DNA from: Kocuria coralli
Lineage (GTDB): Bacteria; Actinomycetota; Actinomycetes; Actinomycetales; Micrococcaceae
NCBI RefSeq assembly: GCF_008831305.1
Contig: NZ_ML708622.1
Coordinates: 1 to 64,000 of the forward strand
DNA length: 64,000 nucleotides
Direction of reading: 5' to 3'
Below, piece by piece: positions 25,418 to 37,034 of this stretch. The position numbers and the translations under genes were made by a program. The notes under the pieces are model-generated. The model saw nothing but the letters and a program-made list of their open reading frames with translations, had not been told where the DNA came from and did no database searches. Position 1 is the first letter of the stretch. Each line of letters starts with the position of its first letter.

Positions 25418-25696
25418 ATGATCGGCTCCATTATCGGATGGATCGTCCTGGGCTTGATCGCCGGTGCGCTGGCCAAGCTCATCATGCCCGGCAAGCAGGG
25501 CGGCGGCATCGTCGTGACCATGCTGCTCGGCATCGTCGGTGCAGTCATCGGAGGTTTCATCATCTCTGTCCTGCCCGGCATCGACATGGAAGGCAGCGGT
25601 TGGATCTTCTCACTGATCGTGGCCGTCATCGGCGCACTCGTCGTGCTGTTCGTCTGGGGCCTGGTCGCAGGCCGCGGCAACCGCGCGGGTCGTTGA
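25418..25696 (+). CDS. GlsB/YeaQ/YmgE-family small membrane protein
   Basis: The 92-residue protein has three hydrophobic segments with the glycine-rich family pattern (IIGWIVLGLIAGALAKLIMPG, MLLGIVGAVIGGFI, SLIVAVIGALVVLFVWGL). The family is annotated as transglycosylase-associated but has no enzymatic domain. Members are often stress-induced and of unknown role. The ATG has GGAAAGAG upstream. It is a single gene between two terminators. The 216 bases upstream hold its promoter region, without a clear consensus pair. Confidence 0.92.
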   Translation: MIGSIIGWIVLGLIAGALAKLIMPGKQGGGIVVTMLLGIVGAVIGGFIISVLPGIDMEGSGWIFSLIVAVIGALVVLFVWGLVAGRGNRAGR

Positions 25697-25720
25697 TGCG
25701 ATAGTCCTCGACGCGGACGG

Positions 25721-25762
25721 TAAAACCCCTTCGGGGCCCTGACGGGCCGCGGAGGGGTTTTA
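25721..25762 (+). terminator. Bidirectional terminator with U-tract
   Basis: TAAAACCCCT and AGGGGTTTTA flank an inner GGCCC/GGGCC stem, and the plus-strand side ends TTTTATG. Tails are T-rich on both strands, so it can stop transcription from either side. Confidence 0.85.
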
Positions 25763-26044
25763 TGTCATCTGAATGGCCTCGACGCCGGTCCGTGACAAAG
25801 ACCACAGAACAATGGCGATCGCCGTGATCCCGCAGGTGGCGCCGGGGATCCACCCCGGAGGTATAGGTTCGGCGTTTCGCGGCCCCGCCCGGCAGTGCTC
25901 GCAAAGGCAGCCCTGTATTCGACCCGGCGCACAATTCCTGCAGGTGAGGAAATCCCGGGTGACATGGGGCTTTGAACTGATTTCACCGGTGATGCCTTCA
26001 CCTACCGGACTCCGGGAAGATATCCTCCCTGCCGCGTTACGCAT
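25760..26044 (-). CDS. Possible small cysteine-motif membrane protein
   Basis: An open frame of about 94 residues ends with a TAA that lies within the edge of the bidirectional terminator, as real genes often do. Its second half has a C-x2-C ... C-x-C-x2-C cluster (CRNC, CLCEHC) followed by one transmembrane helix (ATCGITAIAIVLWSL). The ATG at 26044 is the best start but has no clear ribosome site. GC content falls in this stretch compared with neighbours. Antisense reading frames overlap. It may be real, but nothing identifies a family. Confidence 0.3.
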   Translation of the reverse strand: MRNAAGRISSRSPVGEGITGEISSKPHVTRDFLTCRNCAPGRIQGCLCEHCRAGPRNAEPIPPGWIPGATCGITAIAIVLWSLSRTGVEAIQMT

Positions 26045-26621
26045 AGTGACGGACCATGCATCAGTTGTCCTGACCTGGGAAAACGAGGCACGGGAGAGGC
26101 TGAACGCTGCGAATTCGACGGTACGCAGGCGAAAACCCGCGACTAGAGCATGAGAGGTATCACATCCCCGGCATCGCCGCCGCGCCACGAGGGGATGATC
26201 CGGTCGTGAGATGCCCCGCGCACCTGGCGGCACGGGCACCCGGACAGGCCGGCGGAAGCGGGCCTGTCGGGCGGCCAGTGCCTTCTGACCTCGTCATATG
26301 CGGAATGACCCCGCGCCCGCGGTGCAGAACCCCATGGGGGCGCAGTCTGCTCCGACGGCTCCGCCCGAGCCGTCGGAGTTCGTAACAGACCGATGCGTAA
26401 CACTCTGTTCTCTGTGGTCATAAGAGTCTCAGCGGAAGCTCAGCCGCGCTGAAACTCCTATGATGTGGATGTCATCGCTCGACTCCGGGGGAACGGAGTG
26501 GGCATGACTCGTGAAGCGTGCGTTCACATTTCGCGGTCGCCTTGTTGAGGGGGAATCACAGGGCCCGCGCTGCGGCAGATCCACCGTCGGTGTGACGCGC
26601 GCACGGAAACAGGGGGAAATA
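26045..26621. other. Intergenic region before the glycan synthase
   Basis: There are 577 bases with no convincing gene. An 11-bp perfect hairpin (CTCCGACGGCT, loop CCGCCCG, AGCCGTCGGAG) lies at 26350-26378. The repeated GTAACA elements at 26381 and 26397 follow it. The segment from 26380 to 26621 has lower GC and should contain the promoter and leader of cslA. No -35/-10 pair stands out. Confidence 0.4.
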
Positions 26622-28451
26622 ATGGGGGTTTGCCTTGACGAGACGGAGCTCGAAAAAGCTTTCGTCGTCGGAGAGCCACAGGAAACACGGGATACCAAGA
26701 TCTCGTTCCGTCGAATGCAAGAATCCGCCGGGAGGTGGATTCTCACACTTTTTGTCGCCCTGCTCGCGGTGGGGTTTTCTTTCGCCTACCTGGTTTGGCA
26801 GGCGTACTACGGCTACGTGGCCGGGGTGCTCACGGTAGGTATCGCTCTGGCGTTCGTCGCCGACCTGCTGCGCACCACCTTCACCATCTCGTTGTCGTGG
26901 ACGGCGCTGCTGGCCAAGAAGCCGGTGCTGCCCCGTGCGCGCGACGATCATCGGGTCGCGCTCATCGTCACCTTCGTGCCGTCCTCCGAGGACGCGGCGA
27001 TGCTGGAGAGCCTCCTGCAGGAGGCGCAGAGGATCGACTACCCGGCGAACCAGCTCGAGATCTTCGTCTTCGACGAGGGCGACGGCGGTGTGGTGAATCC
27101 GATCATCCAGCGCGTCAACCGCCTGCCCGGCCACCGCGTGCAGCGGATATCCCGCCATGGTCAGCGCGTGTACAACCAGCCCAAGGGGCGGTTCGAGGCG
27201 AAGACCAAGCACGGCAACATCAACGCTGCGCTGGACAAGATCTGGCGCCACCCCGAGGTCTACGGGACGTTCGACATCATGATGGGGCTGGATCCCGATC
27301 ACATCCCCATGCCCGAGTTCGCCCGGCGCATGCTGGGGTACTTCCGTGATGCCAACGTGGCCTACGTGGCCGGCCCGCAGAGCTACGAGAACGCTCGCCG
27401 CTCCGTCGTGGCCAGGCTGGCGGAGTCGCAGCAGTTCGTCTTCCACACGGTCTCCCAGACGGGGGCGAACGCCGCGCGGGCCCCGATGCTCGTGGGCACC
27501 AGCTACGCCGTCCGGATGAGCGTCCTCCAGCAGGTCGGCGGCATCCAGCCGTCGATCACGGAGGACATGGCCACCTCCCTGGCGATCCTCAGCCGGTGCA
27601 ACCCGGCCACCAGGAAGCAGTGGAAGGCGGTGTACACGCCGGATCTCCTGGCGCACGGGGAAGGCCCTGCGACCTGGGGCGCTTTCTTCAAACAGCAGGA
27701 CCGCTGGTCGCGTGGCGCCATCGAGTACGTGCTGAGCGGGAAGCTCCTGTGGAACACGCTGCGGATGTGGCGGAACCCGCTGGGCGTCATGCACTACAAC
27801 ATCATGATGTCGTTCTACGGCATCATGGGCGTCCTCTGGCTGCTCGCGGCGGCCAATATGGTGGTGACGGCCGTGTGGGGCCCGACCGCCATCGCCGTGG
27901 ACCCCTCGCACTGGGCGATCTTCTACGGCTGGGTGGCCTTCTTCCAGATCACGCTCTACAGCGTGATGCGGCGGTACAACACCAGTCCGTACGAGGAGCG
28001 GTTCTCCTACGGGATCTACGGGATGTTCATGAGCGTCGTGTCGGCGCCCATCTATGCGGCGGCTCTCGTCAAGACCCTCCTCCGCCGCCCGGTCGGCTTC
28101 TCCGTGACCCCGAAGGGCGCCAAGGCCTCGGGGGACAGCCTGTTCACGTTCCGGATCAACATCATGTGGGCCGCGTTCTACGCCGCGATGCTGGGCGTCG
28201 CGATCTCCCTCGGCCACATGCCCCTGGCATCGATGTCCTGGCCGATCATGGGCATCGCCATCGCGCTTGCTCCCGCCGTCCTGTGGCGTTGCGAGCTCCA
28301 CGCCCAGAGGCGGGCGCTCCCCGCCGGGGACGGAGCCGTCGTCGACCGCCTGGGCGGGAGCCTGGACTCTCAGTTCGAAGAGCTCATGGCCGGCCAGGAA
28401 ACAGTACCCACCAGCACCAGGCGCCCCGCGGCCCTGAGCGTTCTGACCTGA
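26622..28451 (+). CDS. cslA: Cellulose synthase-like processive GT2 glycosyltransferase
   Basis: The 609-residue membrane enzyme would polymerise a beta-glycan and extrude it. Two N-terminal helices (residues about 38-85) are followed by a GT2 domain with all processive motifs: FDEGDGG near 150, DPD of MGLDPDH near 223, TED near 313 and QxxRW (QQDRW) near 358. Five or more C-terminal helices follow. The ATG at 26622 has AGGGGG five bases upstream; an upstream GTG frame is not supported. glxA begins 13 bases after the stop. In Streptomyces, CslA works with GlxA and CslZ to make a glycan at hyphal tips. I use the name by homology of layout; the polymer here is unknown. Confidence 0.88.
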   Translation: MGVCLDETELEKAFVVGEPQETRDTKISFRRMQESAGRWILTLFVALLAVGFSFAYLVWQAYYGYVAGVLTVGIALAFVADLLRTTFTISLSWTALLAKKPVLPRARDDHRVALIVTFVPSSEDAAMLESLLQEAQRIDYPANQLEIFVFDEGDGGVVNPIIQRVNRLPGHRVQRISRHGQRVYNQPKGRFEAKTKHGNINAALDKIWRHPEVYGTFDIMMGLDPDHIPMPEFARRMLGYFRDANVAYVAGPQSYENARRSVVARLAESQQFVFHTVSQTGANAARAPMLVGTSYAVRMSVLQQVGGIQPSITEDMATSLAILSRCNPATRKQWKAVYTPDLLAHGEGPATWGAFFKQQDRWSRGAIEYVLSGKLLWNTLRMWRNPLGVMHYNIMMSFYGIMGVLWLLAAANMVVTAVWGPTAIAVDPSHWAIFYGWVAFFQITLYSVMRRYNTSPYEERFSYGIYGMFMSVVSAPIYAAALVKTLLRRPVGFSVTPKGAKASGDSLFTFRINIMWAAFYAAMLGVAISLGHMPLASMSWPIMGIAIALAPAVLWRCELHAQRRALPAGDGAVVDRLGGSLDSQFEELMAGQETVPTSTRRPAALSVLT

Positions 28452-28464
28452 GAAGCAAAAAACT

Positions 28465-30498
28465 ATGGAAAAAACTCGAACCAGCAAATGGAAGCCGCGC
28501 CGCCTCGTACCCGTGGTGGCCACGGGGGCACTGCTCGCGGTCAGCCTTCCCGCCTTCATCATTCCGACCACTACCGCCTACGTCCACGAGTGGCGGATCA
28601 ACACCCCTGAGTACAAGGCGGAGTTCGGCAAGTGGGACCTCCTGGACATCGACGCCGATCTGAAGATCAACGCGATCCATTCGGTGCTGCTGCCCACCGG
28701 CGACGTTCTCCTGATCGCCGGATCGGGCAATGACGCGAAGCACTTCGAGGCCGGTACGTTCCAGACGCTCCTGTACTCCCCGGAGACGGGGGAGGGGGAG
28801 CTGATCGACACCCCGGAGGACCTCTTCTGCAACGGGCACGCGCACCTGCCGAACGGCAACGTCCTGGTGGCCGGGGGCACCCAGGGCTACGAGGTGCTGC
28901 CCGAGAACAAGGAGGCCGCCGGCGGGGTGCTGACGCTCGTCAACGAGAACCCCGACAAGGAGTACATCGTCGAGGCCGGGACCACCGTCAAGGGGCTCAA
29001 GAGCGGCAAGGAGTACGTCACGGACTCCGACATCACCGTGCCGGCGGCCAAGAAGACCCAGGTGGACGACACCTCCTGGGACGTGTCGTCCACGGAGCGC
29101 AACGTCTACATCAACAGCGTCGAAGACGGCGAGGCGGGCATGCTCCCGGAGGGCGACCAGTTCGTGGTCGAGGACATGAAGGGCGACGACCGCGAGAATC
29201 TCCACGGGTACTCGGCGGCGATCGACATGTCCAAGAAGGAGTACCAGGGCATCGACGTCTCCTACGAGTTCGATCCCTTCCAGAAGAAGTACATCAAGGG
29301 CGACCCCATGAACTACGCCCGGTGGTACCCCACGCTGACCTCGATGCATGACGGTCACGTCATCGCGTTGTCCGGTTTGGACGCCGCGGGCAATATCCTC
29401 GACGGCCAGAACGAGGTGTACGACCCGGACACCAAGAAGTGGACCGAACGCGAGGACCTGCGCCGGTTCTTCCCCACCTACCCCGCGGTCTTCCAGACCG
29501 CGGAGGAGGACGTCCTCTTCTCCGCCGGTCCCTCGACGGGCTGGGGCCCGCACGACCAGGGCCGCGACCCGGGGTTCTGGGACCTGACCGATAACACCTT
29601 CGACATCGTCCCAGGCCTCCGGGACCCCGACCTGCTGGAGACCGGCTCGGCCTCGTGGCTCGGCCCGGTCAACGACCAGCGGCTGGTCGTGGTCGGCGGC
29701 GGCGGAATCGGCCACTCGGAAGAGGCGACGGGGCGGATCGACGTCATCGATCTCGACTCTGAGGCCCCGGAGTTCGAGGCCCTGGCCGACCTGCCCGACC
29801 AGACCCGCTACCCGAACCTGGTCACCCTGCCCACGGGCGACATGTTCATCACGAACGGTTCGCGCGACTACCGCGGGCGCGGGGCGTCGGACATCTTCAA
29901 GAGCTACATGCTCGACCACGAGACCGGTGCGCTCGCGGACATGGCGGAGCCGGAGGTGGGCCGCAACTACCACAGCACGGCGATCATGCTCCCCAATGGG
30001 CAGATCCTCGTGGCCGGCAGCGACCCGCTGTACGCCGACGAGGAGAACACGCAGCCGGGCAAGTTCGACCAGCGCATCGAGATCTTCACCCCGCCGTATC
30101 TGTACGGCGAGGACGGGGAGCTGACCGATCGGCCGGCCATCACCTCCGTCCCCGAGACCTCTTCACGGGGATCGGAGATCGTGATCGAGGCCGACCAGGT
30201 GCAGAACTCGGCGATCGAGCACGTCCGGCTCATGGTGCCCAGCGCGGTGACTCACGTCACCGACACCAATCAGCGGATGGTGGACGTGCCGTTCACGGTC
30301 GGCGAGAACGGTGAGCTCATCGGTCACATCCCCGACAATCCGGCGCTCGTCCCGGACGCCCATTACATGGTGGTCGTGGTCGACGAGCGTGGTGTGCCGT
30401 CGGAAGCCGCGTGGACGCACGTCACGGGGGAGGGCGCCGGGGAACCTGCCGACGCCGAGGCCCCCGCTGCCGAGCACGCGGGGCACGCCGGTCACTAG
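28465..30498 (+). CDS. glxA: Membrane-anchored radical copper oxidase, GlxA-like
   Basis: The 677-residue kelch-fold oxidase has an N-terminal signal anchor (residues about 13-35). The galactose-oxidase ligand set is all visible: the cross-linking Cys in LFCNGHAHLPNG near 122, its Tyr partner in RWYPTLTSM near 287, axial Tyr-His in NYHSTAIMLPNG near 501, and the last His in VTHVTDTNQR near 597. Such enzymes oxidise a primary alcohol on a sugar or glycolaldehyde to an aldehyde and release peroxide. A C-terminal DUF1929-type Ig domain follows. In Streptomyces GlxA acts on the CslA glycan. Here it shares the operon with cslA, strong support for the same partnership. The tail is Ala/Glu/His-rich (HAGHAGH), possibly copper-binding. 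Confidence 0.9.
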   Translation: MEKTRTSKWKPRRLVPVVATGALLAVSLPAFIIPTTTAYVHEWRINTPEYKAEFGKWDLLDIDADLKINAIHSVLLPTGDVLLIAGSGNDAKHFEAGTFQTLLYSPETGEGELIDTPEDLFCNGHAHLPNGNVLVAGGTQGYEVLPENKEAAGGVLTLVNENPDKEYIVEAGTTVKGLKSGKEYVTDSDITVPAAKKTQVDDTSWDVSSTERNVYINSVEDGEAGMLPEGDQFVVEDMKGDDRENLHGYSAAIDMSKKEYQGIDVSYEFDPFQKKYIKGDPMNYARWYPTLTSMHDGHVIALSGLDAAGNILDGQNEVYDPDTKKWTEREDLRRFFPTYPAVFQTAEEDVLFSAGPSTGWGPHDQGRDPGFWDLTDNTFDIVPGLRDPDLLETGSASWLGPVNDQRLVVVGGGGIGHSEEATGRIDVIDLDSEAPEFEALADLPDQTRYPNLVTLPTGDMFITNGSRDYRGRGASDIFKSYMLDHETGALADMAEPEVGRNYHSTAIMLPNGQILVAGSDPLYADEENTQPGKFDQRIEIFTPPYLYGEDGELTDRPAITSVPETSSRGSEIVIEADQVQNSAIEHVRLMVPSAVTHVTDTNQRMVDVPFTVGENGELIGHIPDNPALVPDAHYMVVVVDERGVPSEAAWTHVTGEGAGEPADAEAPAAEHAGHAGH

Positions 30499-30524
30499 CC
30501 GGCTCACGGGTCGCAAGCCTCCAA

Positions 30525-30575
30525 ACACCAGTACCCCCGCACCGCCCGTAGAAGGCGGTGCGGGGGTACTGGTGT
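30525..30575. terminator. 22-bp perfect bidirectional hairpin between glxA and cslZ
   Basis: The stem beginning ACACCAGTACCCCC pairs over 22 bases around a seven-base loop. It lies 26 bases past the glxA stop and 36 bases past the end of the convergent GH6 gene, so it serves both. Confidence 0.9.
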
Positions 30576-30611
30576 ATCCGGGCGGGCGTGGTCCGCCTAC
30601 CCGGGGCCGTG

Positions 30612-31721
30612 CTATTCCGCCGGGGTCTCGGACCGCCCGCCGACCTGCTCGAGCAGCAGCTCGCCGTCGAATTCCCCGGCGGGTCGCTGGCTGATGCCGC
30701 ACTCACCGTCGGATTGGCCGAGCACCTTGATGTAGGCGACCTCGACGGGCTCGTCGGGATCGAAGGTGGTGTCGATGGCCCCGACGCGCTGTCCCACGGG
30801 GTTGCACCAATCGCCCTCGGCGACGCCCTCCGGGTCGCCGTTGCGGGAGTTGTCGATCAGGACGTACAGCGGCTTCCCGAACGCTTCCTGCACCTCTTCG
30901 GCGTAGGCGCGGGTGTCCTCCTCGGAGATGAAGTTGGCGACGTTGAGAGAGATGCCTTCGACGCCGTGCTGGCTCTGCTCTTCCACCCTCTTGAGCAGAT
31001 CGGCCGTCAACTCGGGGTCGCGCCAGGTGGCGTTGCCGGCGTCGAGGTAGGTGGCCGTGTTGGAGTTCGCGTGGAGGGTGTCCAGGGCGTTCGCCAGCAG
31101 GCCGACCCTGGCCTCCGCCTCCTCGTCGGACAGGTCGGGCAGGTGCGCGAGGGCGTCCGGCTCGAGGACCACGACGGCGCCGTTGTCGCCGATCTGCTCG
31201 CTCAGCGCCGTGATCCAGCCCTCGTACTCGCCGTCGGAGTCCACGCCCCCGGTGGAGTGGTTGCCGACATCGCGCTCGGGGATGTTGTAGGCCACGAACA
31301 ACGGCAGCTGCCCCTGCTCGGAGGCAGCCTGAACGGTCTGCGCGACGTAGCCGTCGTCGATCTTCTTGGTGTCGGCGATCCACTCGGCGATGGGGAGGTT
31401 CTCGAGCTCCTCCAGATCCGCCTGGGTCTCGCCCTGCGAACTGCTGGCGATCATGCCGACGTCGGTGTAGTAGGAGTTCTCCTTATGAGCGTAGAACTCG
31501 CCGCGTCCGGGAGCGTTCCGCTCGGGGAGCGTCTCGCCTTCTGGCTGCGGTTCGGGGGAGGTGCACGCCACCAGACCGAGGACCAGCGCCCCCGTGACGG
31601 CGCCGCCGTAGACTCCCCGCGTCCACCGTCCTCTCCCGGCGCTGCCCGCCTCCGCGAGATCCCCGGGACGGGCCTCGACCGGAGCGGGCGCCTTCGAAGC
31701 CTGTCTACGAGCAAACATCAT
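30612..31721 (-). CDS. cslZ: GH6 family endoglucanase lipoprotein, CslZ-like
   Basis: The 369-residue protein has a transmembrane lipobox (LVLGLVAC-TS, Cys about 53) after a long basic cytoplasmic head, so it is anchored outside the cell. GH6 motifs are all present: AEWIADTKKID, VAYNIPERDVG, the catalytic Asp in VLEPDAL near 182, YLDAGNATW, ISLNVANF, IDNSRNG and a late YIKVLGQSDG. GH6 enzymes cut beta-1,4-glucan. In Streptomyces CslZ is a GH6 partner of CslA/GlxA. Here it is convergent to cslA-glxA instead of co-directional. The start is one of three adjacent ATGs (31724, 31721, 31718). GGGGA spacing favours 31721. Confidence 0.88.
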   Translation of the reverse strand: MMFARRQASKAPAPVEARPGDLAEAGSAGRGRWTRGVYGGAVTGALVLGLVACTSPEPQPEGETLPERNAPGRGEFYAHKENSYYTDVGMIASSSQGETQADLEELENLPIAEWIADTKKIDDGYVAQTVQAASEQGQLPLFVAYNIPERDVGNHSTGGVDSDGEYEGWITALSEQIGDNGAVVVLEPDALAHLPDLSDEEAEARVGLLANALDTLHANSNTATYLDAGNATWRDPELTADLLKRVEEQSQHGVEGISLNVANFISEEDTRAYAEEVQEAFGKPLYVLIDNSRNGDPEGVAEGDWCNPVGQRVGAIDTTFDPDEPVEVAYIKVLGQSDGECGISQRPAGEFDGELLLEQVGGRSETPAE

Positions 31722-31935
31722 CATGAAATCCCCATGCCTCTGGTGTCTCTCTGCAACGGTAGTCCAGGGTGCGACCGCCGGTTCCCCGTCGACGGTCTCG
31801 CCGCGGCGCACCGGCGTAGTCGCGCCGCCCCTGTGATCGGCCGTGCCCGGGAGATCGAAGATGCCTGCAGTGCTCTCCCGTTCCTGTGCGCCTCAGACAG
31901 AACTTTATCCCACTCACCGCCGGCGACGGGTCGGT

Positions 31936-31941
31936 CATACT
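31936..31941 (+). promoter_or_regulatory. Candidate -10 for a leaderless dxr transcript
   Basis: CATACT ends six bases before the dxr ATG, the spacing of leaderless actinobacterial messages. There is no separate ribosome binding site at normal distance. It sits in the 226-base divergent region with cslZ. Confidence 0.4.
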
Positions 31942-31947
31942 GGGGGC

Positions 31948-33225
31948 ATGGCCCGCACCGAGAACCCATCCACCGGACGACCCCCTCACCTGTGGGAGTC
32001 CCTGCTGGAGCACCGCCCGCGCCGGGTGAGCATCCTCGGCTCCACGGGATCGATCGGTACCCAGGCCCTCGACGTGATCCGCGGGGCCCGCCGGGAGGCG
32101 CAGCGGGAGGTCTTCATCGTGACGGCCCTGTCCGCGGGGCGGTCCAACCTGGAGCTGCTGGCCCGGCAGGCGGTGGAGACCCGCCCAGAGCTGGTGGCCA
32201 CCAGCGGTGACGGTGACGACGCCGCCCGCCTGGCCGAGCTCATCTCCACGTGCGCCGGGGACGCCGGGGCGGCGGGGTATCGCCCGCAGGTGATCCACGG
32301 ACCCGACGCGGCGACCCGGGCCGCTGCCGTGGAGACCGCGGACCTGGTGCTCAACGGGATCACGGGCTCGATCGGACTGGCTCCGACGCTCGCCGCCCTG
32401 GAGTCCGGCAAGCTCCTGGCCCTTGCGAACAAGGAGTCCTTGATCGCCGGCGGGGCCCTGATCGACGAGGCGGTTGCCGCCTCCCCCCACGAGGATCCGC
32501 TCATCCCCGTGGACTCCGAACACTCCGCGCTGGCTCAGGCCCTCCGCTCTGGGACGTCCGCGGAGGTGGACCGCCTGGTCCTGACGGCCTCGGGCGGCCC
32601 GTTCCGGGGACGGGCACGGAGCGAGCTGCTGGAGGTGCAGCCCTCCGACGCGCTGGCGCATCCCACCTGGGACATGGGCCTGATGGTCACCACCAATTCG
32701 GCCACCATGGTCAACAAGGCTCTGGAGGTGCTCGAGGCCCATCTGCTGTTCGGCGTCCCGCTGGAACGGATCGACGTCGTGGTCCATCCCCAGTCCGTGG
32801 TGCACTCCATGGTGCAGTTCACAGACGGTTCCACGATCGCCCAGGCCTCACCGCCCGACATGCGCCTGCCGATCGCCCTGGGGCTGGGCTGGCCGCACCG
32901 GGTCCCCGGGGCTGCGGCACCGTGCGACTGGTCCCGGGCCACCTCCTGGAGCTTCGAGCCGCTGGATGAGGACGCGTTTCCGGCCGTGCGCCTGATCAAG
33001 CGGGCGGCCGCCAAGAGCCCCACCACGCCCGCGGTCTACAACGCGGCCAATGAGCAGGCGGTGCTGGCCTTCCACGACGGCAGGATCGGGTTCCTGGACA
33101 TCGTGGACACCGTGGCCCGTGTGGTCGACGAGCACGAACCGGCCCGGGAGCTCAGCGTCGAGACCGTTCTGGCCGCCGAGGAATGGGCTCGGGCGCGGGC
33201 GGACGAACTGCTCAGTACACGGTGA
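31948..33225 (+). CDS. dxr: 1-deoxy-D-xylulose 5-phosphate reductoisomerase
   Basis: The 425-residue enzyme converts DXP to MEP in the non-mevalonate isoprenoid pathway using NADPH. The NADPH loop is GSTGSIG near residue 31, and the substrate and metal segments are [30 protein letters not shown] and [12 protein letters not shown] at 31948 was chosen because upstream sequence is not conserved and shows no ribosome site. Its 3' end overlaps the convergent pflA gene by 14 bases. Together with ispG 9 kb downstream it shows the organism uses the MEP route. Confidence 0.96.
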
Positions 33226-34174
33226 GCCCCCTGGCGCGGAACCGGTCGCGAGCCGCTTCCGTCTCCCGCGCCGTCGGCGGCTGGGTGCCTCCGAGGGTGT
33301 AGTCCAGCCCCAGTGCGGCCCATTTGTCCGCGCCCATGGTGTGGAAGGGCAGCACCTCGACCCGTTCCACGGAGCCCCATTGCGCGACGATGTCCGCGAC
33401 GGCCTCGATGTTCTCCGGGGCGTCCGTGAGGCCGGGGACCAGGACGAAGCGGATCCACAGGGGCTTCCGCATGGCGGCCAGCCTGTCGCCGAACGCGATG
33501 GTGGGGGCCAGGGCGCGGCCGGTGGTCTCCCGGTAGACGGCCTCGGTGCCGGATTTCACGTCCAGCAGCACGAGGTCCACGTCGTCGAGCAGCTCATCGT
33601 CGGCGACCCGGCCCAGGAAACCGGAGGTGTCCAGGGCGGTGTGAACCCCCATCTCGCGGGCGCCGCGCAGGATGCGGCGTACGAACCGGTGCTGGAACAA
33701 CGGCTCGCCCCCGGAGATGGTGAGCCCTCCGCCCGTTGCCGCGAAGACCTTCCGGTAGCGCCTGATCCGCCGGAGCACCTCCTCGACCGGCTGCAGCGTG
33801 CCGCTCTTGAGCTGCATGGTGTCCGGGTTGTGGCAGTACTGGCACCGCAACGGGCAACCGGAGAGGAACAGGGTCATCCGCGTGCCCGGCCCGTCGACGG
33901 CGGTCACGAGCTCCCACGAATGGATCGACCCGATCCGCCCCGCATGCAGGGCCTGGACCTTCTCGTGATGGAGTGGTGCTCCGTCGTCGTCCAGCGGCAG
34001 GAGCTCCCGGTGGAGCTCCGCCAGGGTCTCGGGCAGTCCGGAGGCCGTTCCGCGGCTGCGCGGTCGTGCCGGGGCCCCGTGGCCGACGGGGGACACCGCC
34101 TCGGTGGGTCGCATGGCCGCGACTGAGCCCTCCGACGGTGTGAATCTGGGGTGGATGGTGCGTGTTCCGGGCAT
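33212..34174 (-). CDS. pflA: Pyruvate formate-lyase activating enzyme (radical SAM)
   Basis: The 320-residue protein installs the glycyl radical on PflB using S-adenosylmethionine and a 4Fe-4S cluster. The radical SAM motif [11 protein letters not shown] is near residue 107, followed by [11 protein letters not shown] and the DVKSG segment. The N-terminus carries about 75 residues more than typical PflA; the start at 34174 has GGAG close by, but an ATG at 34114 would give a shorter form. It lies downstream of pflB in the same direction, after a strong hairpin. Confidence 0.93.
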
Positions 34175-34214
34175 GGTTCTCCGCTCGATTCGTCGCTGCC
34201 CGAGGGGTCCGGGG

Positions 34215-34263
34215 CGGCAGCCGCCCTGCCGTGCCCTGGCGAGGTACGGCAGGGCGGCTGCCG
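34215..34263 (-). terminator. 21-bp hairpin between pflB and pflA
   Basis: The stem with arms around GCCGCCCTGCC / GGCAGGGCGGC pairs over 21 bases (one G-U) with a seven-base loop. It begins 12 bases past the pflB stop. It probably makes pflA expression lower than pflB, since the activase is needed catalytically. Confidence 0.75.
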
Positions 34264-34274
34264 GCGGGACCGGC

Positions 34275-36554
34275 TCAGACGCGGTCGTGGAAGGTGCGGG
34301 AGAGCACGTCGAGCTGCTGCTCCCTGGTCAGCCGCACGAAGTTCACCGCGTAGCCGGAGACCCGGACCGTCAGCTGCGGGTAGTCCTCCGGATGGACCAT
34401 GGCGTCCTCGAGCGTCTCCCGGTTCAGCACGTTGATGTTCATGTGGTAGCCGTCGGAGAGGTTCTGCGCATCCAGCAGGCCGACCAGGTTGGTGACCTGC
34501 TCGTCCCGGGTACGTCCGAGCCCGCTGGGCACCACGGTGCTGGTCAGCGAGATCCCGTCCATGGCCTCGCCGAACGGCAGCTTGGCCACGGACAGCGCGG
34601 AGGCCAGCATGCCGTGGGTGTCACGGCCGTTGGACGGATTGGCACCGGGGGCGAAGGGCTCACCGAGCCTGCGGCCGTCCGGGGTGTTGCCGGTGGCCTT
34701 GCCGTAGACCACGTTCGAGGTGATGGTCAGCACCGACTGGGTGTGCACGGCGTCCCGGTAGGTCGGGTGGCGGCGGATCCGCTCCATGAACTCGTGCACG
34801 ATCCGCACGGCGATCTCGTCGGCGCGGTCGTCATCGTTACCGTAGGCGGGGAACTCGCCCTCGATCTCGTAGTCCACCACCAGCCCGGTGTCATCGCGCA
34901 CCGGCCGCACCGTGGCGTACCTGATCGCGGACAGGGAGTCGGCGGTCACCGACAGCCCGGCGATGCCGCACGCCATGGTGCGCAGCACCTCGCGGTCGTG
35001 CAGGGCCATCTCCAGGCGCTCATAGGCGTACTTGTCGTGCATGTAGTGAATGCAGTTCAGCGCCTCGACGTAGGTGGCGGCCAGCCAGTCCAGCAGGACC
35101 AGGAACTTCTCCCAGACGTCGTCGAAGTCCAGGACCTCGCCGGTGACCGCGGGGGACTCGGGGGCGATCTGCTGCCCGGAGACCTCGTCGCGGCCACCGT
35201 TGATCGCGTAGAGCAGCGATTTGGCCACGTTGACCCGGGCGCCGAAGAACTGCATCTGCTTGCCCACGGTCATCGGGGAGACGCAGCAGGCGATCGCGGC
35301 ATCGTCGCCGCAGGCGTCGCGGATCAGTTCGTCGGACCCGAACTGGATGGCCGAGGTGTCGATCGAGACCTGCGCGCAGAAGCGCTTGAAGCCTTCGGGA
35401 AGCTCCGCCGACCAGAACACGGTCAGGTTCGGCTCGGGGGCCGGGCCCAGGTTGTACAGGGTCTGCAGGAAGCGGAACGAGGTCCTGGTGACAAGGGTCC
35501 GCCCGTCGGCGCCCATGCCTCCGATCGACTCGGTGACCCAGGTCGGATCACCCGAGAAGAGCTGGTCGTATTCGGGGGTGCGCAGGAAGCGCACGATACG
35601 CAGCTTGATCACCAGGTCGTCGACGATCTCCTGGACCTCGGACTCCGTCAGCGTGCCCTCGGCGAGGTCCCGGGTGAAGTAGGCGTCGAGGAAGGCGGTA
35701 TTGCGGCCGAAGGACATGGCGGCGCCGTTCTGCTCCTTGACCGCGCCCAGATAAGCGAAGTACAGCCACTGCACGGCCTCGGTGGCATTGGCAGCGGGGC
35801 CGGAGATGTCGAAGCCGTAGGAGCGGGCCATCTGCTCGAGCTCGCGCAGGGCGCGGACCTGCTCCGCGTTCTCCTCGCGCTCGCGGATCACCTTCTCCTC
35901 GGCGGGGTAGAGGTCCAGCTCCGCGCGCTCACGCAGCTTGCCCTCGACCAGGGCGTCGACGCCGTAGAGGGCGACGCGGCGGTAGTCGCCGATGATGCGG
36001 CCGCGTCCGTAGGCGTCGGGCAGGCCCGTCACCACGTGGGAGGAGCGTGCGGCCCGCACGTTGGGGGAGTAGACGTCGAAGACGCCGTCGTTGTGGGTCT
36101 TGCGGTAGGTCGAGTAGACCTTCTCGAGGTTCTCGTCGACGGGGTAGCCGTAGGTCTGCAGCGAACTCTTGACCATGCGCCATCCGCCGTTGGGCATGAT
36201 GGAGCGCTTGAGCGGGGCGTCGGTCTGCAGACCCACGATGATCTCCTGCTCGGCGTCGATGTAGCCGGGCCGGTGGGAGGTGATGGTCGACGGCGTCGTG
36301 GCGTCGATGTCGTAGACGCCCTTCTCCCGTTCGGCCGGGAACATCTCGAGCAGCTTCTGCCAGATGCCGGTCGTGCGCTCGGTGGCATCCTCGAGGAAGG
36401 CGGAGTCCCCGTCGTAGGGGGTGTAGTTGCGCTGGATGAAGTCGCGGACGTCGATGTCCGTCTGCCACGGACCGGCCGCGAAACCACGCCAGGCTCGCGC
36501 TCCGGGGTCGACGTCCTCGTCGTGGACGGGGCGATCGGTGGTCTGTGCGGTCAT
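34275..36554 (-). CDS. pflB: Formate C-acetyltransferase (pyruvate formate-lyase)
   Basis: The 759-residue glycyl-radical enzyme splits pyruvate and CoA into acetyl-CoA and formate without oxygen. The adjacent active-site cysteines are in [12 protein letters not shown] near 424, and the glycyl radical loop is RVSGYAVNF near 732. The length matches the E. coli enzyme. It shows the strain can ferment or overflow pyruvate under low oxygen, although the rest of the locus is aerobic in character. No FNR-type site is evident in the 280 bases between its start and the SAM riboswitch. Confidence 0.96.
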
Positions 36555-36831: not shown

Positions 36832-36950
36832 GCAAAGGATGACGAGTCCCGGCGACTAGCTCTGGCTGGCCGGGCGGCAACCCTCTCACGTGGTGGGGTG
36901 CCCCAGATGAACATCCGGCTCCGGTCACGGACCTGACAGCAAGCACGAAA
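36832..36950 (+). ncRNA. SAM-type riboswitch (SAM-IV/S-box like) upstream of metQNI
   Basis: A closing stem GGATG (36837-36841)/CATCC (36912-36916) encloses the pieces expected of a SAM aptamer: GGCCGGGCGGCAACCC and GTGGTGGGGTGCCCC. This GGCAACC plus GGGGTGCC pattern is typical of actinobacterial SAM-I/SAM-IV leaders. Bases 36917-36950 can supply the outer pseudoknot partner. It lies 85 bases ahead of metQ, a methionine importer, which is its logical target: high SAM would switch the importer off. The subclass was not proven by alignment. Confidence 0.75.
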
Positions 36951-37034
36951 TCTGCGCCCCTCGTCGAGGTGCTTTCCACCGTGCATGCCGCGGGCCCTGT
37001 GGCCGCCGCATCACGAACGAAAGGCACACCCTTC

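What the first reader, a model, noticed from the sequence alone, without database searches (positions are those of the whole stretch)
26622..31721. Complete cslA-glxA-cslZ glycan locus in a probable non-filamentous actinobacterium
Three genes encode a processive GT2 synthase with all D, DxD, TED and QxxRW motifs, a membrane-anchored radical copper oxidase with the full Cys/Tyr/Tyr-His/His ligand set, and a GH6 lipoprotein. Together they match the Streptomyces machinery that makes and modifies a glycan at hyphal tips. The surrounding gene order suggests Micrococcaceae, which do not form hyphae, so the polymer must have another use (surface matrix, aggregation). The GH6 gene is convergent rather than in the operon, and no copper chaperone or DtpA-like peroxidase is visible nearby.
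Basis: partly seen in the sequence, partly recalled or inferred. Interest (0 to 1): 0.75.

Follow-up and report, generated by a model that had tools for sequence, protein, structure and literature searches.

The report
Transplanted cellulose-synthase trio in Kocuria
A round, non-hyphal bacterium of the genus Kocuria carries, in one clean 6-kb insertion, the three-gene machine that Streptomyces uses to coat its growing tips with a cellulose-like polymer, in a version whose copper enzyme ends in a histidine-rich tail that may help it pick up copper.

Summary
In detail: cslA (26622-28451 +), glxA (28465-30498 +) and a GH6 lipoprotein gene (30612-31724 -) lie between conserved genes of a Kocuria species. 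GlxA passes NCBI's GlxA equivalog cut-off and has all five cofactor residues. The convergent GH6 gene is no departure from Streptomyces: it is convergent in all 31 Streptomycetaceae loci, of 48 examined, that have one. Nor is the trio confined to hyphal genera. What is unusual: (1) a clean insertion of about 6.3 kb; 12 of 12 congener stretches examined show the empty site, and none of the 26 other held genomes of the genus has a full GlxA; (2) its GlxA lies in a supported clade of 22 (98/97) whose members all end in a His- or Met-rich tail, against 1 of 107 other GlxAs; (3) no Sco or PCuAC copper chaperone was found in the genome. AA10 LPMO and GGDEF are missing too, but so they are in other non-Streptomyces carriers or in a congener. 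The only other named member of the clade is a Saccharibacteria MAG; CslA-GlxA occurs in 4 of 392 genomes of that class. Glucan synthesis and copper loading by the tail are inferred. New variant of a known kind.

The parts
25418..25696 (+). Transgly_assoc membrane protein gene, left flank of the insertion
   Evidence: Pfam PF04226; directly followed by dxr in 12 of 12 congener stretches examined
25687..32019 (.). Segment without a counterpart at this place in Kocuria soli-like L148; carries the trio
   Evidence: blastn alignments to L148 end at 25686 and resume at 32020
26622..28451 (+). cslA: GT2 beta-glucan synthase, 609 aa
   Evidence: DxD 224, TED 313, QxxRW 358, FxVTxK 493; BcsA relatives in PDB; tree
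28465..30498 (+). glxA: membrane-anchored radical copper oxidase, 677 aa
   Evidence: NF052501 941.9 bits; 4unm E 3e-158
28504..28599 (+). N-terminal hydrophobic helix of GlxA, residues 14-45 (probable membrane anchor)
   Evidence: hydropathy, predicted helix
28918..29214 (+). GlxA beta-barrel domain, residues 152-250
   Evidence: PF21110 E 1.5e-19
30130..30423 (+). Galactose-oxidase-like early set domain, residues 556-653
   Evidence: PF09118
30424..30495 (+). C-terminal tail, residues 654-677, ending EHAGHAGH; candidate copper-binding arm
   Evidence: lies beyond the GlxA family model, which ends at residue 654; pLDDT<50 for 657-677; tail clade
30525..30575 (.). 22-bp perfect hairpin with 7-nt loop between the converging genes; possible two-way terminator (no T tract; not listed by the terminator scan)
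   Evidence: z -7.7; repeat I2
30612..31724 (-). cslZ-like GH6 glucanase lipoprotein gene, convergent with glxA
   Evidence: PF01341 E 2.8e-48; lipobox LVAC; best solved match a putative Cel6 cellulase, 1up0
31948..33225 (+). dxr, right flank of the insertion (start inferred by eye)
   Evidence: DXP reductoisomerase domains

Best explanation
A horizontally acquired, self-contained cellulose-type glucan module of the CslA-GlxA-CslZ kind. CslA polymerises and extrudes a beta-1,4-glucan from UDP-sugar; GlxA, held beside it by its N-terminal helix, is needed for CslA activity and oxidises or processes the emerging chain with its Cu-radical site; the GH6 lipoprotein trims the glucan and helps it through the wall. 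In this coccus the product is most likely a surface glucan for wall protection, aggregation or adhesion, since there is no hyphal tip. Shown by sequence: gene identities, motifs, ligand residues, insertion, clade. Inferred: expression, polymer, interaction, role.
For: Families, motifs and ligands complete. S. lividans CslA-GlxA makes cellulose in vitro and GlxA is needed (PMC11022532, outline and sections 5, 6 and 9 read). CslZ is a lipoprotein and, together with LpmP, essential for glycan deposition (PMC9040799 passages). Clean insertion against 12 of 12 empty sites examined, boundaries 25686/32020. Full GlxA in 1 of 27 genus genomes and 1 of 197 family genomes. GlxA and CslA trees agree on the branch. 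Frames intact and GC3 0.90-0.92 like the neighbours. Another contig probably holds the glxA-dxr junction: both proteins list a longest contig of 8710 bases (inference).
Against: Partners used in Streptomyces were not found genome-wide: AA10 LPMO 0, GGDEF 0, Sco none (its one weak match is a peroxiredoxin), PCuAC 0. GGDEF matters because full in vitro activity of the S. lividans complex needed c-di-GMP (PMC11022532). These absences are not peculiar to this genome: LPMO is missing in all 10 non-Streptomyces genomes, GGDEF also in the congener G416 and in G572, G884 and G573. CslA is far below the curated CelA cut-off (88.5 against 699), so the sugar is not fixed by sequence. I saw no functional data for any Kocuria.
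Confidence: 0.75

Rival explanations
1. The tail matters most: this GlxA branch loads copper by itself. The His/Met-rich disordered C-terminus gathers copper outside the membrane and hands it to the active site, replacing the Sco/ECuC/DtpA route. (An addition to the main reading rather than a contradiction of it.)
For: 22 of 22 clade members carry H or M in the last three residues of a tail of at least 7, against 1 of 107 others. Clade tails hold 18.1% H+M against 2.1% in other tails and 3.6% in the protein bodies. Lengths (7-41) and sequences differ while composition is kept. One more such tail, in G143, lies outside the clade. None of the 3 searched genomes with a tailed GlxA (G000, G572, G143) has Sco; PCuAC is absent in the 2 tested. 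Extra copper rescues GlxA maturation in sco mutants (PMC4736821 passage), so loading without the chaperone is possible.
Against: 12 of 20 other distinct GlxA genomes also lack Sco, so 0 of 3 against 8 of 20 is not significant. Untailed Saccharibacteria-class genomes lack PCuAC too. This genome does have a DyP peroxidase, of EfeB type. Copper binding is not shown; the tails are related by descent.
Confidence: 0.35
2. A hetero-glycan rather than cellulose: CslA-GlxA-GH6 makes an oxidised or mixed beta-glycan (for example with galactose or GlcNAc).
For: CslA falls below the CelA cut-off and has weak PgaC similarity (34 bits, cut-off 422); the authors of PMC11022532 leave the in vivo polymer open; S. 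coelicolor CslZ also cuts chitin and peptidoglycan.
Against: The gating and acceptor motifs are of the cellulose-synthase type and the solved relatives are BcsA; GH6 acts on beta-1,4-linked glycans (PMC9040799).
Confidence: 0.2
3. A non-functional relic or assembly artefact.
For: Only one of 27 held genomes of the genus has it; accessory genes not found.
Against: All three frames intact with the motif and ligand residues; both flanks are Kocuria on one contig; clusters P0001 and P0241 stand for 3 and 6 member sequences; codon usage normal.
Confidence: 0.04

Closest known systems
cslA-glxA-cslZ locus of Streptomyces (SCO2836-2838)
   Same: Same three families, same order, same convergent GH6 lipoprotein; GlxA passes the equivalog model named after Sco2837
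   Different: GlxA mostly 41-47% identical to Streptomyces GlxAs, with a His-rich C-terminal tail; no LPMO, Sco, PCuAC or GGDEF found in the genome; coccoid host genus
CslA-GlxA of Saccharibacteria-class genomes (G572/L039, G884, G788, G965)
   Same: CslA next to GlxA in 4 of 4; GH6 downstream of glxA in G788 and G965 and upstream of cslA in G884; G572 GlxA is in the same tailed clade
   Different: Other phylum, genomes of 0.9-1.4 Mb; no GH6 on the 15.8-kb stretch of G572; three of four GlxAs untailed
Nocardia and Gordonia CslA-GlxA
   Same: Nearest untailed groups in the GlxA trees; Nocardia GlxA is the nearest named by identity, 53%
   Different: No metal-type tail; GH6 co-directional in the Gordonia locus L010
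Gram-negative bcsA-bcsB-bcsZ
   Same: Synthase, membrane-anchored partner and glucanase (PMC11022532)
   Different: BcsB has no homology to GlxA; the BcsZ family is recalled as GH8, not GH6

Membership tests
GlxA (radical copper oxidase) | Score above NCBIfam NF052501 cut-off | tested here: met
   941.9 against 800; control short oxidase L092 416
GlxA (radical copper oxidase) | GlxA barrel (PF21110) plus GO-like E-set | tested here: met
GlxA (radical copper oxidase) | Cys, Tyr, Tyr-His and His cofactor/copper residues | tested here: met
GlxA (radical copper oxidase) | Tyr-Cys cross-link and oxidase activity | not testable with these tools
   needs purified protein
CslA-type cellulose synthase | DxD(H), TED, QxxRW, FxVTxK motifs | tested here: met
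CslA-type cellulose synthase | RxxxR c-di-GMP motif after the gating loop | tested here: not met
   absent, but also absent in a number of Streptomyces CslAs, so not diagnostic
BcsA/CelA cellulose synthase (TIGR03030) | Curated score cut-off | tested here: not met
   88.5 against 699.1, so it is not filed as BcsA; Streptomyces CslA was not scored as control, Saccharibacterial CslA L039 gives 89.6
CslZ (GH6 lipoprotein) | GH6 domain and lipobox, next to glxA | tested here: met
Streptomyces apical-glucan system as a whole | LpmP-type LPMO in the genome | tested here: not met
   0 matches; 3 of 3 Streptomyces positive, 0 of the 10 others, this genome included
Streptomyces apical-glucan system as a whole | Sco/ECuC copper route | tested here: not met
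   (ECuC tested through Pfam PCuAC, which rings beside Sco in 3 of 3 Streptomyces)
Streptomyces apical-glucan system as a whole | DtpA peroxidase | tested here: inconclusive
   one DyP, of the EfeB iron-uptake type TIGR01412, 468 against 428; whether it can act as DtpA is unknown

The most novel reading that the evidence does not exclude
There is a distinct branch of the CslA-GlxA system in which GlxA carries its own copper-gathering C-terminal arm, works without Sco, ECuC, LPMO or c-di-GMP, and moves as a compact three-gene module between actinobacteria and Saccharibacteria, the ultra-small epibionts that live on them; the Kocuria insertion is one fresh landing of it.
Probability: 0.25. Interest if true: 0.75.

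Novelty: new variant of a known kind. Interest (0 to 1): 0.5.

Why it matters
In the papers I saw, the CslA-GlxA complex is studied in hyphal Streptomyces, where glucan synthesis, tip growth, copper maturation and wall passage are hard to separate. A coccus with the trio but without the accessory genes that were searched is a natural reduced system: it could tell which parts are essential, and it offers a direct test of whether a metal-binding tail can replace dedicated copper chaperones. The Saccharibacteria copies raise the question of why ultra-small bacteria would make or process cellulose.

Tried and rejected
Foreign composition as evidence of transfer: GC (65.8-68.4%) and GC3 of the trio match the neighbours, so composition neither supports nor dates it. 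Mobility: the GlxA search of plasmids gave 25 records, all under 60% identity, best 41.7% in a Streptomyces plasmid; viral contigs gave no relative. I noticed no transposase or integrase at the edges, but made no dedicated search for one.

RxxxR motif as predictor of c-di-GMP control: absent here, but scattered through all groups, so dropped. PF21110 as a stand-alone marker in Saccharibacteria: 46 of 392 genomes match, 30 over cut-off, yet of the 30 loci returned only 4 show similarity to GlxA; 5 of the other 26 that I looked at are unrelated proteins of about 550 aa; the 16 under the cut-off were not fetched. The idea that the tail replaces the chaperone was tested by co-occurrence and is not significant. 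A first table of gene orientation used stop-to-stop frames and missed neighbours; one search replaced it. Consensus promoters: none found.

Rows and limits: one search aligned 151 rows, with 53 of the 119 listed relatives (which itself shows 120 of 2277) and loci. For the tail count I left out 6 duplicates (L103 among them) and 16 short or damaged oxidases (L075, L078, L088, L089, L091-L102), leaving 22 + 107. The 107 still hold a few copies of one protein under two names (P0041/L143, P0086/L019) and one GlxA whose end is cut off by its contig (L027), counted as untailed. P0037 in the clade lacks its N-terminus. The 80 loci are the best 80 of 107 confirmed ones.
Full report
What is there. Three intact genes lie between a Transgly_assoc gene (25418-25696) and dxr: cslA 26622-28451 (+), glxA 28465-30498 (+, 13 bases after cslA) and a GH6 lipoprotein gene 30612-31724 (-). 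GlxA is the best supported: NCBIfam equivalog NF052501 941.9 bits (cut-off 800), 4unm as best solved relative (E 3e-158; recalled to be S. lividans GlxA), all five cofactor residues, and an AlphaFold2 model from 16 sequences with mean pLDDT 81, an N-terminal helix 14-45 and a low-confidence end 657-677. CslA has DPDH, TED, QQDRW and FSVTPK. The GH6 protein has a lipobox and aligns over most of its length with the putative Cel6 cellulase 1up0. A 22-bp perfect hairpin (30525-30575) separates the converging glxA and GH6 genes; it has no T tract and the terminator scan did not list it.

Host. Two new Kocuria species described in PMC12149201 have coccoid cells of 0.8-1.2 um (passages). The genome has 3.43 Mb in 70 contigs, 99.99% complete.

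Insertion. In 12 of 12 congener stretches fetched (12 of the 26 other genomes, all with dxr) the Transgly_assoc gene is followed by dxr with nothing of the trio between. Against the closest (L148) the alignment stops at 25686 and resumes at 32020. Full GlxA is found in 1 of 27 held genomes of the genus and 1 of 197 of the family; the other matching genomes (3 and 14) show no alignment to the barrel region in those outputs. In the order PF21110 occurs in 7 of 396 genomes, in the class in 31 of 394, 27 of them in one genus code, presumably Streptomyces.

Arrangement. Of the 80 named loci (the best 80 of 107), 48 are Streptomycetaceae: 36 have cslA just upstream and 31 a GH6 match within 3 kb downstream, all 31 convergent. 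Of the 32 others, 23 have cslA upstream and 26 a GH6 neighbour: 21 co-directional only, 3 convergent only, 2 both. The test used the window's proteins as queries, so a distant GH6 can be missed, and loci cut by contig ends are in the totals. Kocuria thus has the Streptomyces-like arrangement, though its proteins group elsewhere.

Phylogeny and tail. In a quick tree of 74 rows (3 of them outgroup oxidases) and a careful tree of 41 the window lies in a clade of 22 (in one search: bootstrap 98, SH-aLRT 97). The Nocardia type is next to it (89/87), then P0027 and the Gordonia type. The CslA tree agrees: the 7 CslAs whose GlxA partner is known to be tailed form one side of a branch, with 8 unassigned rows among them (support 91; five partners were assigned by equal contig length, an inference). 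All members of the GlxA clade have a C-terminal extension with H or M in its last three residues: 22 of 22, against 1 of 107 others, L005. A further table of 36 loci, which repeats L005 and L008, added no new case. Clade tails hold 18.1% H+M; the 15 tails of 7 or more residues outside the clade, L005 included, hold 2.1%. Members share ancestry, so these are not independent events, but length and sequence vary while composition holds. A subclade of 8 (P0005-P0012) has a lipobox-like cysteine at the N-terminus (7 by pattern, P0006 by eye). Of 12 papers listed for at least two of the words GlxA, radical copper oxidase and histidine-rich (20 found), none holds the last.

Copper and accessory genes. 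In S. lividans, Sco, ECuC and DtpA serve GlxA maturation at low copper and lie away from the locus (PMC4736821 passages). In this Kocuria genome the SCO1-SenC model gives one match of 24.2 bits, just over its cut-off, but that protein is a peroxiredoxin (AhpC-TSA 128.9 bits); PCuAC 0, while the K. soli-like G416 has one; one DyP of EfeB type; LPMO 0; GGDEF 0. Positive controls: the three Streptomyces genomes searched have Sco, PCuAC and a DyP within about 4 kb of one another, and all have LPMO and GGDEF. Against a simple reading: of the 25 genomes, three have a tailed GlxA; two pairs of handles among the rest are the same genome (identical DyP coordinates), leaving 20 others (one, G578, with the GlxA end cut off), of which 12 also lack Sco. 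LPMO is absent from all 10 non-Streptomyces genomes, and GGDEF also from G416, G572, G884 and G573. So the absence of single partners is common outside Streptomyces, and the trio without them is not unique to Kocuria.

Saccharibacteria. Of 392 genomes of the class of G572, four have CslA beside a real GlxA (G572, G788, G884, G965). GH6 genes follow glxA in G788 and G965; in G884 one lies upstream of cslA with a small ORF between. Three of these GlxAs were scored and pass the equivalog cut-off (P0033, P0041, L141). In the tree they sit in three places: G572 inside the tailed clade, G884 at the base of the Gordonia-Nocardia-tail group, G788 and G965 together far off. L039 has 47% GC with enolase- and PEP-synthase-like neighbours (by eye), and G884 and G788 lie on contigs of 1.29 and 1.10 Mb, so contamination is unlikely. 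Paper searches, open-licence full text only: Saccharibacteria with cellulose synthase 0, with galactose oxidase 3, with GlxA 1; Patescibacteria with cellulose synthase 5; Kocuria with cellulose synthase 7. By titles and abstract starts none is about this; none of these was opened.

Reading. The module most likely makes and processes a beta-1,4-glucan at the cell surface. That it works in Kocuria without the Streptomyces accessory genes, and that the tail is a copper arm, are inferences. 

Noticed in passing
L039, L141, L142, L143: CslA-GlxA in 4 of 392 Saccharibacteria-class genomes, with GH6 close by in 3; three separate positions in the GlxA tree. The paper searches showed nothing on it by title.
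   Followed up: partly
P0005-P0012: GlxA variants with a lipobox-like cysteine at the N-terminus, although in S. lividans the N-terminal helix anchors GlxA in the complex with CslA.
   Followed up: partly
window 33212-36554: pflA-pflB (pyruvate formate-lyase and activase) just right of dxr; also beside dxr in L148, but not matched between dxr and metQ in the 9 congener stretches that reach metQ.
   Followed up: no
window 36838-36951: SAM-IV riboswitch in front of a metQ-metN-like methionine transporter.
   Followed up: no
L100-L102 and L091-L099: Shorter galactose-oxidase-like proteins in some Micrococcaceae, 30-39% identical, with no alignment to the GlxA barrel; function unknown.
   Followed up: partly
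L112-L137: Proteins of about 550 aa in Saccharibacteria-class genomes that match the Pfam GlxA barrel model weakly; no similarity to GlxA by BLAST (5 looked at). The model alone can mislead.
   Followed up: partly
L005 (G143): A separate Met/His tail (MPGMDHAAMGH) on a GlxA of another family of the order; that genome has no Sco or DyP match.
   Followed up: partly
window 30525-30575: Long perfect hairpin (22 bp) between converging genes, without a T tract.
   Followed up: partly
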